Origin: Chloroflexus aurantiacus J-10-fl
Lineage (GTDB): Bacteria > Chloroflexota > Chloroflexia > Chloroflexales > Chloroflexaceae
DNA: 64,000 nt
Direction of reading: 5' to 3'
Assembly (NCBI RefSeq): GCF_000018865.1
Contig: NC_010175.1
Coordinates: forward strand, 2,294,001-2,358,000
Shown: piece by piece, positions 20,548 through 24,121 of the stretch
Numbering within the stretch: position 1 is the stretch's first letter
Layout of the letters: every line of letters begins with the position of its first letter
Notes under the pieces: generated by a model
What the model was told of the DNA's origin: nothing
Seen by the model: the letters and a program-made list of their open reading frames with translations, nothing else
The model's database searches: none
Program-made: the position numbers and the translations under genes

Positions 20548-21489
20548 ATGGCCGACCTGACTCCTGAACAGATTTTTGACCTCCTCAACCGACCTGGCCC
20601 GTTGTGGCTGGTGGGGGCGAATTTGAGTGGTGCGAACCTGAGTGCTGCTAATCTGAGCAATGCCAACTTAAGCGAAGCCCAATTGAGCCGTACCCGCCTC
20701 ACCGATGCCAACCTGTACCGGGCCGATCTGAGTGTGTGTGAGTTGGGTGGTGCCAATCTGAGCTGGGCCAATCTGCGTGAAGCGCGATTGAATTGGGCAC
20801 AACTGGTGCGTGCCGATTTGAGTGATGCTGATTTGCGTAAGGCCGATCTGAGCTGGGCTAACCTGGAATTTGCGTCGCTGGTTGGCGCCAATCTGCGCGG
20901 CGCTAATTTAAGTGCTGCCGACTTCAGTGGGGCCAATCTGTACGGGGCAAACCTCAGCCTGTGCAATCTCAGTGGTGCCGATCTGCGCGATACGGTGATG
21001 ATCGGGGCAAATCTGAGCGAAGCACAACTGCGCGAGGCGCAACTGGTGAATTTGAGTGGCGCAAATCTGAGTGGTGCTATCCTGATTCGGGTGAGCCTCA
21101 ATGGCGTCAACGGCAACGGGGCCAATCTGGCGAATGCCAATTTGATGCACGCCAATCTGCGTGAGGCGACCTTCGATGAGGCAAATTTTATCGGTGCCAA
21201 TCTCAGCGAAGCCAATTTAGGCGAAGCCAGTTTGTGTAATGCCGATTTCAGCGAGGCGAACCTTAGCGGTATTTACCTCAGCGGCGCTAATCTCCGCGGG
21301 GCGATCTTCACGCGGGCCAATCTGTCTCGTGCGAACCTGAGTGGGGCCAACCTGCGTGGTGCGAACCTGCGTGGCGCGAACCTGCGTGAAGCGAGTCTGG
21401 CCGACGCCGATTTGACCGAGGCCGATCTGACTGATGCCGATCTGACCGATTGTGATCTGACCGGTGCGAAGGGGGTGGCGGGATTGTAG
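20548..21489 (+). CDS. Pentapeptide-repeat protein
   Basis: This 313-residue protein is built almost wholly from A(D/N)LXX pentapeptides (for example LSGANLSAANLSNANLSEAQ), predicting a right-handed quadrilateral beta-helix of about 12-13 turns. About 20 N-terminal residues (MADLTPEQIFDLLNRPGPLW) precede the repeats. No signal peptide or membrane segment is present. AAGGAGGG precedes the ATG. Some pentapeptide proteins mimic DNA and protect gyrase, but nothing here assigns that role. The V4R-like gene directly upstream is the likely operon partner. Confidence 0.9.
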   Translation: MADLTPEQIFDLLNRPGPLWLVGANLSGANLSAANLSNANLSEAQLSRTRLTDANLYRADLSVCELGGANLSWANLREARLNWAQLVRADLSDADLRKADLSWANLEFASLVGANLRGANLSAADFSGANLYGANLSLCNLSGADLRDTVMIGANLSEAQLREAQLVNLSGANLSGAILIRVSLNGVNGNGANLANANLMHANLREATFDEANFIGANLSEANLGEASLCNADFSEANLSGIYLSGANLRGAIFTRANLSRANLSGANLRGANLRGANLREASLADADLTEADLTDADLTDCDLTGAKGVAGL

Positions 21490-21537
21490 TCAGAGAATCG
21501 TTGCAAGAGTTACCAATTTGCTATGCCATGGGCTATC

Positions 21538-21605
21538 AAACCTCGCGAGCCAATCATATGCCGGACATAGAGTACGGATGACTGTGCTCGCGGGTTTGCT
21601 TTTTC
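21538..21605 (+). terminator. Long-loop terminator after the pentapeptide gene
   Basis: AAACCTCGCGAGC (21538-21550) pairs with GCTCGCGGGTTT (21586-21597) with one bulge. The loop is 35 bases, and GCTTTTTCT follows. It sits between convergent genes. Confidence 0.5.
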
Positions 21606-21613
21606 TAACTATG

Positions 21614-22141
21614 CTACTCGTATGGACCCAGAAAGCGTTCCCCATTAAAATGAACAATATGACCTGGAGACTCTGCTATCCAGACTTCCGTTGCCCAGGC
21701 GATTTCTTGAAGATACTTTTTCATTACTTTTCGTGTAGGAAATGCTGTTACAAACACTAAAGGAGATTTACTAGCTCTAAACAGATCTTTGAGTTCGTTA
21801 TGGCGTTTCATATTGATCGGGCCATGACTGGTCACTGCTTCGATGAGAACAAGCCAGTTTTGATCTGGTACATGGATAATCACATCTGGCATCTTGCTGT
21901 GCTCATTCACATGAACACCCAATTGTTCAAAATATGTTCGCTCAAATAGCTTGAACTTGTCACCGGCGTCGCCCACGTATATGACAACTCCCCCCGGTGT
22001 AAAACGCGGACAGAAATCCTCGATAATCTGCTTAATGAGCGTATTTTGTCCTCCTGCGGTTATGTTGATTTCGCTACCATCCGGCAATCGCACAGGGATT
22101 AATGCCTGAGACCGTTCCCTTTCGCGCAGGCGTTGCAGTCC
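21614..22141 (-). pseudogene. BsuBI/PstI-type restriction endonuclease, C-terminal domain (split off by a stop codon)
   Basis: This 175-codon stretch continues in exactly the same frame as the methyltransferase gene after its TAG at 22144-22142. It encodes the C-terminal nuclease domain of the BsuBI/PstI family: GGQNTLIKQIIEDFCPRFTP, YVGDAGDK, MPDVIIHVPD and LVLIEAVTSHGPINMKRH. The domain looks complete to its natural end. No ATG lies between the TAG and the conserved core; the only early alternative start is a GTG at 22093 without a convincing ribosome binding site. The rest of the nuclease lies upstream of the TAG. It is either a decayed gene, a sequencing error, a readthrough product or a split enzyme. 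Confidence 0.8.
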
Positions 22142-24121
22142 CTAAGCAGTCGCCAGATAGTTTCTCAGCTTGTTTTCCCATGCATCTGTACCAAATGACT
22201 TGATTAATGCCAGAAGGTTGGATTCCATCTGATAACGTGTCTTGGGGCTGTTGATAGGTCTATCCGGGTCGTCTGGATTAGGAATGACGAGATTCATCTG
22301 CACAAACTGATGAATGGTCTGGCGACGCACAGTTTCGCGCGTGTTTGGTGCATACGTGATACCAAATTGATCTCGGAAGTAATTCATCATTTCTGTTATG
22401 CCATACAAAGGAGCAGATGCATCTGCCCAATCGCTGTCTGGTCTGACGTTTGCGAGTGCAAGCAATGTGAGAGCAGAGCGTTGATTGATCAGGACCCTGG
22501 GCACCTGAAGTGCACGAAGAATTTCCATCGCCTCTTCAATCTTTTTTCTGGCCTGCAAATCATTACTCGTTGTGGCCATGCCCAGCCTTTCTATCACGAG
22601 ATCATCCAGTTGTTGTTGCGGTGGGAATGTCTCACCAATACTTTCACCTATTGCAATCAATTGATCTTTTGTTGGATACCTGAAGTTGCGTAAATCTGTG
22701 GCATTGACCTGAGTATGTCCACTGAACTGTCTGAAATATTCATCTGCGATTGTAGAATTGAGGAAAGCTGCAATCCCTTTCGCCAGAGCCGGCAATAAGC
22801 CATGACCATCTTGATGATAGTAATTCAAGTGATTTTCAAATCCCGTAAGGTCTGCATCAATTCTGTCAGGGTTATATACTGCTGCAACTAATCTACGCTT
22901 TTCTTCTTTTGCAGAAAAGCGCTTAACCAGAACATACCAGCCACGTGGAAGTAACAGACTCGCTGTGGCGGGGTGGATTTTGATAGCATTTGGTTTCTTT
23001 CCAGGTTTACCGGGCCATGTGATGTATCCTTCCAAAAAATTGTTTGGATAAATAAGGGGAGCCTTTTCTTCCCCATTTCCTTCACAGAGAAATTCCTTAA
23101 CGCGAAAATCAACCACTCTCCCGGTTGAAATCTGAATACCTAACTCGCTGAGCGATGTTGAAAGCCGCTCTACATGCTGTCCTATGTGTTGATGCAATGT
23201 GTCAGGCACAATCCGAATAAATAGTGCTGGATCATCCGGTTTCACAACCTGATCGAAAGTGACTTCTCGTATAGACATCCATGCATCATCAGGCCCCTCG
23301 CTGGCAGAGATGGCAATCTTGTTGCGCTGTTGGGATTTTACTGCGTGTACGATGATGTTCTCTTGAAGGACATCTTCTTCGTGGAAAGCTCTATCACGAT
23401 GCTCAAAAACGTGAATTCTTTGAATAGACATTGTAGATAAGAAGGCTTTTCTGAACGGAAGAAAATAAGGCCCATTGCAGAAACTTCGCGGGGTTATGGC
23501 TGCAATTTGTCCGTTAGGCTCAAGTAGTTCGAGGGCAATCCAGAAAAAAGCGGTATATAGATTGCTGGTTTCTATGCCGGCTTTTTGTAGTAGTCGGCGA
23601 GTGCGTGATTTTCCGTGAATTTTCTTATATGGAGGGTTCATGATAATAGTGTTAAAAGATTTGCAAAGTGGAGCAAAAAGGGTTTTATTGCTCATGAGCA
23701 TGTCAATGCCTGCCTCAATAAAGTCTTCTGGGATAATCTCATAATCAAAATCAATATCCTTTTGCCGACATATCTGGCAACAATGCTCCAGTGTCGATTG
23801 CAAATATTCTCGTAAGACTGGATCAATTTCGTAGGCAGTAATCTTGATCCGGGCAGGTGGTGTTTGCCACGTGCAGGCTGCAGCAACCAGGGCCGCTGAT
23901 AAAGAGCCGACACCTGCACCGGGATCGAGGACATGTAAGGTGTCAGGTCTGTGCGTGAAAAGGCCAGCCATGAATTGCGCGATACCTTGAGGGGTAAAAA
24001 ACTGTCCCTTCTCGGCGCGATTGGCTTCGAGCTGCTGACTGGCTTTCAGGCGCAGTAATTCGACCCTTTCAAGCAAGTGTTCGTGTTGAATAGGGTTTAT
24101 AATCAATGTGTCCGTTGTCAT
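22142..24121 (-). CDS. N6-adenine DNA methyltransferase fused to BsuBI/PstI endonuclease N-terminal domain
   Basis: This 659-residue protein methylates adenine in a target site, presumably a PstI-like sequence. Residues 1-480 or so carry the methyltransferase: FFTPQGIAQFMAGLF, SAM motif I (VLDPGAGVGSLSAAL) and catalytic NPPY in TIIMNPPYKK. The last 160 residues are unlike a methyltransferase and match the helical N-terminal domain of BsuBI/PstI nucleases, for example LINQRSALTLLALANVRPDS, YAPNTRETVRRQTIHQF and RPINSPKTRYQ. The frame then meets TAG and continues into the nuclease C-terminal domain. I start at the ATG at 24121, with AGGA about 13 bases upstream, rather than a GTG at 24142. It lies 53 bases after uvrA on the same strand. 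Confidence 0.85.
   Translation of the reverse strand: MTTDTLIINPIQHEHLLERVELLRLKASQQLEANRAEKGQFFTPQGIAQFMAGLFTHRPDTLHVLDPGAGVGSLSAALVAAACTWQTPPARIKITAYEIDPVLREYLQSTLEHCCQICRQKDIDFDYEIIPEDFIEAGIDMLMSNKTLFAPLCKSFNTIIMNPPYKKIHGKSRTRRLLQKAGIETSNLYTAFFWIALELLEPNGQIAAITPRSFCNGPYFLPFRKAFLSTMSIQRIHVFEHRDRAFHEEDVLQENIIVHAVKSQQRNKIAISASEGPDDAWMSIREVTFDQVVKPDDPALFIRIVPDTLHQHIGQHVERLSTSLSELGIQISTGRVVDFRVKEFLCEGNGEEKAPLIYPNNFLEGYITWPGKPGKKPNAIKIHPATASLLLPRGWYVLVKRFSAKEEKRRLVAAVYNPDRIDADLTGFENHLNYYHQDGHGLLPALAKGIAAFLNSTIADEYFRQFSGHTQVNATDLRNFRYPTKDQLIAIGESIGETFPPQQQLDDLVIERLGMATTSNDLQARKKIEEAMEILRALQVPRVLINQRSALTLLALANVRPDSDWADASAPLYGITEMMNYFRDQFGITYAPNTRETVRRQTIHQFVQMNLVIPNPDDPDRPINSPKTRYQMESNLLALIKSFGTDAWENKLRNYLATA

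What the first reader, a model, noticed from the sequence alone, without database searches (positions are those of the whole stretch)
21614..24121. One in-frame TAG cuts a methyltransferase-endonuclease fusion within its nuclease
Seen directly: the frame of the methyltransferase meets TAG at 22144-22142 and reopens in the same frame without a shift. The sequence before TAG matches the BsuBI/PstI nuclease N-terminal domain; after it comes the complete C-terminal domain. The nuclease body is intact on both sides. Such a lone stop could be a recent inactivating mutation that leaves a protective methylase, a readthrough site giving a little fused enzyme, or a sequencing error. That the two halves make a working split enzyme is less likely, as no good ribosome binding site precedes the second part.
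Basis: partly seen in the sequence, partly recalled or inferred. Interest (0 to 1): 0.8.

Follow-up and report, generated by a model that had tools for sequence, protein, structure and literature searches.

The report
Restriction enzyme fusion cut by stop
A bacterial gene that joins a DNA-marking enzyme to a DNA-cutting enzyme carries one stop signal between the two parts of the cutter, so the cell most likely still marks its DNA but can no longer cut foreign DNA with this enzyme; this looks like ordinary decay of a defence gene, with the twist that broken relatives tend to break at the same joint.

Summary
On the minus strand a fused N6-adenine methyltransferase / BsuBI-PstI nuclease gene (24121-21614) meets one in-frame TAG at 22144-22142. 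It lies in the linker between the nuclease's HTH domain (complete before it) and its catalytic domain (complete after it). The two nearest relatives (63-64% identical, one in the same genus) are single open frames there. The gene is a horizontal insertion: 7 of 7 other genomes of the genus lack it at this site, and its GC is 45% against 56% in the window. I found no sign of recoding: TAG ends 16 of 39 likely window genes, no CTA anticodon among 48 tRNA loci, no unusual RNA fold, no start with a ribosome-site word just after the stop. Best reading: a recent nonsense mutation removed the nuclease and left a methyltransferase-HTH protein. Unexpected: among 102 collected fused frames, 11 of 14 independent nuclease lesions (this one included) fall in the same stretch of 56 of 309 codons. 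This was seen first and tested after. In one cyanobacterial lineage a methyltransferase-HTH product without nuclease shows low dN/dS. Sequencing error could not be tested.

The parts
22145..24121 (-). methyltransferase plus nuclease HTH domain: the 659-codon product expected from the gene as it stands
   Evidence: open frame; Pfam N6_Mtase 34-212, Eco57I 153-243, BsuBI_PstI_RE_N 526-658
22145..22546 (-). nuclease N-terminal HTH domain, residues 526-659
   Evidence: Pfam PF17728, E 3.5e-48 in the truncated protein, profile 2-134 of 140; predicted fold
22142..22144 (-). in-frame TAG in the interdomain linker
   Evidence: a residue in 82 of 82 relatives without lesion, variable column
21617..22141 (-). 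175 codons, same frame, holding the whole catalytic domain; no plausible start found
   Evidence: Pfam PF06616 full length 1-154/154, E 6.3e-63; start scan
21614..21616 (-). TAG at the end of the fused frame; the protein of L083 aligns to the last residue before it
   Evidence: alignment to L083
24175..27072 (-). uvrA, upstream neighbour; in relatives its end lies next to the pentapeptide-repeat gene (empty site)
   Evidence: the name uvrA is from reading the sequence, not from a family scan
20548..21489 (+). pentapeptide-repeat-like gene, the other edge of the insertion site
   Evidence: name from reading the sequence, not from a family scan

Best explanation
A horizontally acquired, single-chain type II restriction-modification gene (adenine methyltransferase fused to a BsuBI/PstI/SdaI-type nuclease) has taken a recent nonsense mutation in the linker of its nuclease. 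Shown: open frames on both sides, the domain-boundary position, open frames in the two nearest relatives, the empty insertion site, no tRNA or RNA signal for recoding found, no likely start found after the stop. Inferred: translation ends at the TAG; the product is a methyltransferase carrying the nuclease's HTH domain; it still methylates its (unknown) site and restriction by this enzyme is lost; the downstream half is untranslated.
For: Domains and frame. Nearest relatives single open frames: L083 (another genus of the family, 536 of 835 identical) and L084 (same genus). Downstream half little degenerate: identity to L083 is 0.747 in the catalytic domain against 0.617 in the methyltransferase and 0.664 in the HTH, so the stop is recent against the divergence from these relatives. 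TAG is an ordinary stop here (16 of 39 large frames that I took as likely genes); none of 48 tRNA loci has a CTA anticodon; RNA fold around the TAG z = -0.27. Similar outcome elsewhere: 11 of 14 independent nuclease lesions in fused genes lie at columns 645-700 (10 of 13 without the window's own). In L286/L287/L288, which by eye share one deletion of the catalytic domain and its flank, dN/dS is 0.17-0.25 in the methyltransferase and 0.16-0.25 in the HTH.
Against: No expression, methylation or protein data; an error at one base was not testable. Methylation by the 659-residue product is assumed. The catalytic half departs from 4 of 42 columns conserved at 95% or more (4 of 82 relatives score as high or higher), one of them a glutamate kept by 81 of 82; the HTH domain departs at one column where 82 of 82 have Q. 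This hints at some relaxation or an older defect, but at the 80% threshold the catalytic half is unremarkable (39 of 82 as high or higher).
Confidence: 0.83

Rival explanations
1. Sequencing or assembly error: the living strain has a sense codon and a working fused enzyme.
For: One base would be enough; both halves look nearly intact.
Against: The genome is held as one contig, 99.95% complete, which speaks for a finished assembly but does not test this base. Stops at or near this linker also occur in independent genomes, for example L195 (TGA at column 665, on a contig at least 4.4 Mb long).
Confidence: 0.08
2. Leaky or programmed readthrough of the TAG makes a little full-length enzyme, keeping restriction low.
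For: The frame stays open and well conserved after the stop.
Against: No CTA anticodon among 48 tRNA loci, one of which got no clear identity; no structure beyond shuffles; TAG a common natural stop; the two nearest relatives have no stop here.
Confidence: 0.05
3. Functional split: methyltransferase-HTH and a free catalytic domain made separately work together.
For: The cut is at a domain joint; catalytic-domain-only open frames exist in cyanobacteria (L211, L212).
Against: No start with a ribosome-site word just after the TAG. 61 of 81 relatives without a stop have a Met at column 672 or 674, where this gene has Q and L. No ribosome-site-like codon bias at the conserved Arg before it: AGG/CGG 13 of 79 against 895 of 3838 for all Arg. 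The catalytic-only frames have no methyltransferase match in the fetched stretches of 6.3-7.0 kb, and one (L213) is itself frame-shifted at its start by eye.
Confidence: 0.03

Closest known systems
SdaI (PDB 2ixs) and the BsuBI/PstI nuclease family (PF17728 + PF06616)
   Same: both domains, whole length: phmmer E 1.3e-75; Foldseek E 1.5e-30 over 310 columns
   Different: 2ixs is a nuclease chain of 323 residues; here the nuclease is fused behind a methyltransferase and interrupted by TAG between its two domains. As one rigid body the model fits poorly (TM 0.47, rmsd 11.8), in line with unsure domain placement (pTM 0.53). Site specificity here is unknown.
Fused single-chain methyltransferase-BsuBI/PstI nucleases (PADLOC PDLC03359, 840 positions)
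   Same: same order and length, E 1.3e-184 before and 5.7e-65 after the stop; 102 distinct fused frames collected, the window's included
   Different: this copy's frame stops before the catalytic domain
Type IIC fusions such as the engineered RM.Eco29kI (PMC3039593, passages read)
   Same: both activities in one chain
   Different: there the nuclease comes first and the fusion was engineered; here the methyltransferase comes first, the fusion is natural and it is broken
Solitary (orphan) methyltransferases (PMC12707154, passages read)
   Same: expected outcome: modification without a partner restriction function
   Different: here the nuclease's HTH domain stays attached and the catalytic half still lies downstream

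Membership tests
BsuBI/PstI-type restriction endonuclease | N-terminal HTH domain | tested here: met
   PF17728, 526-661, E 1.8e-48
BsuBI/PstI-type restriction endonuclease | catalytic domain with the conserved core residues | tested here: met
   PF06616 1-154/154; the near-invariant D746, E761, H766, G767 and R773 are kept, E810 (81 of 82) is A. That these belong to a PD-(D/E)XK active site is recalled.
BsuBI/PstI-type restriction endonuclease | domains made as one polypeptide | tested here: not met
   TAG at 22144-22142; no tRNA or RNA signal for reading it found
Fused (type IIC-like) R-M enzyme | methyltransferase and whole nuclease in one frame | tested here: not met
   met up to the HTH domain only; met by 82 of 102 collected fused frames without a lesion row
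N6-adenine methyltransferase | N6_Mtase/Eco57I domain with the NPPY motif, open frame | tested here: met
   NPPY seen; 1 of 76 columns conserved at 95% departs
N6-adenine methyltransferase | methylation of a defined site | not testable with these tools
   CTGCAG is depleted in this genome (24 against 136 expected in 400 kb) but as much in G006 (15 against 99), which has no match to the system, so this says nothing
Stop-codon readthrough / recoded TAG | suppressor tRNA, reassigned TAG or a stimulatory structure | tested here: not met
Split enzyme of two genes | start codon and ribosome site for the second part | tested here: not met

The most novel reading that the evidence does not exclude
The linker of these fused enzymes is a preferred exit: nuclease loss is tolerated mainly when the cut leaves whole domains, because the HTH domain has become part of a working methyltransferase. 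The interrupted gene would then be one of many convergent conversions of a restriction enzyme into an HTH-bearing solitary methyltransferase, not simple decay.
Probability: 0.22. Interest if true: 0.5.

Novelty: new member of a known kind. Interest (0 to 1): 0.27.

Why it matters
By itself it is one more restriction gene that lost its nuclease. If the linker pattern holds, it offers a test of whether fused restriction enzymes decay in a preferred way and whether a nuclease's recognition domain helps the methyltransferase it stays attached to.

Tried and rejected
Suppressor or reassigned TAG: no support. Of the 48 tRNA loci one (L167) got no clear identity, anticodon read 'cgaa'; a tRNA that Rfam's model misses would not be seen. 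Recoding structure: none. Internal start at the catalytic domain as a conserved device: no codon bias. CTGCAG avoidance as a trace of past PstI-type restriction: as strong in G006, which has no match to the system, so dropped. The 39 'window genes' are large frames that I picked as likely genes, not annotated genes.

Confirmation of the linker cluster on a new sample (interval written down) had almost no power. The new sample added one independent event (L290, inside), three rows of a lineage already counted (L286-L288) and one re-find of L039 (L289). The cluster is therefore mainly the post hoc set.

Selection: the 102 fused frames come from loci that the tools returned (80 of 131, at most 30 per genome search, best first) plus stretches I fetched by hand, mostly because the match looked partial. 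Seven of the 102 were fetched so, four of them with a lesion (L286, L287, L288, L290). So 82 of 102 is not a population rate.

Rows dropped before the 11 of 14: L037, L087 and L102 (matches end 120, 5 and 120 bases from the end of the stretch; with L037 and L102 counted as outside it is 11 of 16). L291 (stops at the methyltransferase/nuclease junction) and L298 (deletion starting near column 528, same cyanobacterial group) were not counted; both lie outside the interval. Nine rows with a stop at the junction (two genes in frame, L291 among them) were set aside. L286, L287, L288 and L202 were counted once, on the ground of a downstream flank shared by eye. Pieces without a methyltransferase start (L112, L214, L215, L211-L213, L292, L293 and others) were not counted. 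Lesions of stand-alone nucleases were not counted either: about 648 (L091), 679 (L207), 699 (L093), 711 (L049), 715 (L108), 737 (L265), that is 3 of 6 inside the interval, a weaker pattern. Two counts of unbroken rows differ by one: 82. The extra row is L229, for which one search lists one TAG; I did not locate it.

Papers: PMC3150298 (genome paper; only passages for chosen terms, no occurrence of restriction, pseudogene or methylase), PMC3039593 and PMC12707154 (passages). No paper on this gene or on linker breaks in this family appeared in the lists of nine searches of the open-access library; most listed papers were not opened. The SdaI structure paper did not appear.

Full report
What is there. 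On the minus strand the frame from ATG 24121 runs 659 codons to TAG 22144-22142 and then 175 codons in the same frame to TAG 21616-21614. Pfam places N6-adenine methyltransferase models at residues 34-243, the BsuBI/PstI nuclease HTH domain at 526-661 and the whole catalytic domain at 675-828. PADLOC's type II model of 840 positions covers both pieces. The only solved relative found for the nuclease part is SdaI, by sequence and as the one Foldseek match at E 0.001 or better (E 1.5e-30, but TM 0.47 and rmsd 11.8 as one body). In a predicted model of the nuclease part (mean pLDDT 85.5, pTM 0.53) the last HTH helix ends at 141, the stop is residue 143, at the start of a short linker helix, and mean confidence dips to 69 and 63 over residues 141-160. 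The stop therefore sits in the linker.

Where it lies. The genome is one contig of 5,258,541 bases; I recall this as the size of Chloroflexus aurantiacus J-10-fl, and no call names the genome. The gene is single in it. In 7 of 7 other genomes of the genus the upstream gene (uvrA by its sequence) is followed within about 200 bases by the pentapeptide-repeat gene; only here does the R-M gene lie between them. In G011 and G009 the pentapeptide gene matched only in part. The gene's GC is 45.2% against 55.6% for the window, and its third-position GC is 42-43% in both halves against 67% in uvrA. This is a horizontal insertion. G008, in the same genus, carries an unbroken relative at another place.

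Relatives at the stop. L083 (another genus of the family, 64%) and L084 (same genus, 63%) are single open frames across the place. In 82 relatives the column has a residue every time, of 11 kinds, so it is a free linker position. Genomes with some match to the query: 26 of 41 in the family (E 0.001, this genome included), 35 of 400 in the phylum (E 1e-20), 9 of 398 and 40 of 386 in the phyla of G418 and G419 (E 1e-40), 99 of 340 in the order of G1195, 16 of 198 and 15 of 194 in the phyla of G420 and G421 (E 1e-40; some genomes recur between calls).

State of the two halves. Identity to L083 is 0.617 in the methyltransferase, 0.664 in the HTH and 0.747 in the catalytic domain; L083 and L084 are 0.88-0.90 alike in all three. 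The catalytic half has thus not run ahead of the rest, which points to a recent stop. Against this, it departs from 4 of 42 columns conserved at 95% or more (4 of 82 relatives score as high or higher), among them a glutamate kept by 81 of 82; at the 80% threshold it is ordinary (39 of 82 as high or higher). The HTH domain departs at one column where 82 of 82 have Q.

Could the stop be read? None of 48 tRNA loci has a CTA anticodon; one got no clear identity. TAG ends 16 of 39 large frames taken as likely genes. The RNA around the stop folds no better than shuffles, z = -0.27. Could the second half start by itself? The first in-frame ATG/GTG/TTG codons are GTG 22093 and TTG 22087, with none of four ribosome-site words in the 15 bases before them. 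Of 81 relatives without a stop 61 have a Met near the start of the catalytic domain, column 672 or 674; this gene has Q and L. Arg codons before it show no bias towards a ribosome site. Neither readthrough nor a split enzyme is supported; neither is disproved.

A pattern beyond the window. I collected 191 distinct methyltransferase frames, 102 of them continuing in frame into the HTH domain, the window's included. Twenty of the 102 have a lesion in the nuclease part. After removal of three that end at the edge of their stretch, and counting one cyanobacterial lineage once, 14 events remain, the window's included. Eleven fall in columns 645-700, which are 56 of 309 codons (binomial 1.5e-6; a scan that lets the interval move freely gives 8e-5, or 5e-4 with two of the edge rows counted as outside). 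Without the window's own event it is 10 of 13 (binomial 6e-6, scan 2e-4). The lesions are of different kinds: nonsense, frame shift, inserted bases, loss of the whole catalytic domain. On a FastTree tree of the methyltransferases (93 of 188 inner branches well supported) the linker-broken state needs 13 changes for 14 rows, against the single event that I assume for four of them from their shared flank. In L286, L287 and L288 dN/dS is 0.17-0.25 (methyltransferase) and 0.16-0.25 (HTH). L202, of the same lineage, gives 0.25-0.27 and 0.23-0.31 against L286 and L288, with signs of recombination (HTH far less diverged than methyltransferase); an unbroken relative, L199, nests among them and gives 0.11 and 0.42 against L286. 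So the constraint may partly predate the loss. Six stand-alone nucleases with a lesion show it inside the interval in only 3 cases. My reading: when the nuclease is lost, cuts that leave whole folded domains are tolerated best, because the methyltransferase must stay sound. This is inference; the interval was seen first and tested after, and the new sample added only one independent event.

Verdict. An ordinary, well-preserved, probably recently broken restriction-modification gene. Specificity is unknown; the CTGCAG depletion seen here is shared by a genome of the genus without the system and proves nothing.

Noticed in passing
L211 (G906), L212 (G867), L213 (G883): Cyanobacteria with only the catalytic domain of this nuclease as a short frame and no methyltransferase match in the fetched stretch; L213 is frame-shifted near its start by eye.
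   Followed up: partly
L091 (G007, same genus), column 648: A stand-alone relative of the nuclease with a TGA near the same linker, next to its own methyltransferase.
   Followed up: no
L207/L218 (G1105), linker of the stand-alone nuclease: A tandem duplication of about two dozen bases shifts the frame in the linker region (seen by eye).
   Followed up: no
G008:C1:1772537-1772800: A 3' remnant of a second BsuBI/PstI nuclease with a TAG in a genome that also holds an unbroken fused copy.
   Followed up: no
three Chloroflexus genomes, 400 kb each (L330-L389; genus name recalled): Several six-base palindromes (CGATCG, CAGCTG, CTGCAG, GAGCTC, CGTACG) are strongly depleted in all three, also in G006, which lacks this system; other R-M genes were not surveyed.
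   Followed up: partly
L167 (G000:C1:3029330-3029510): A tRNA gene that ARAGORN could not name, anticodon loop read as 'cgaa'.
   Followed up: no
window 21520-21600: Inverted repeat AAACCCGCGAGC...GCTCGCGAGGTTT just after the gene's last stop, perhaps a terminator; seen by eye, not reported by the scan.
   Followed up: no
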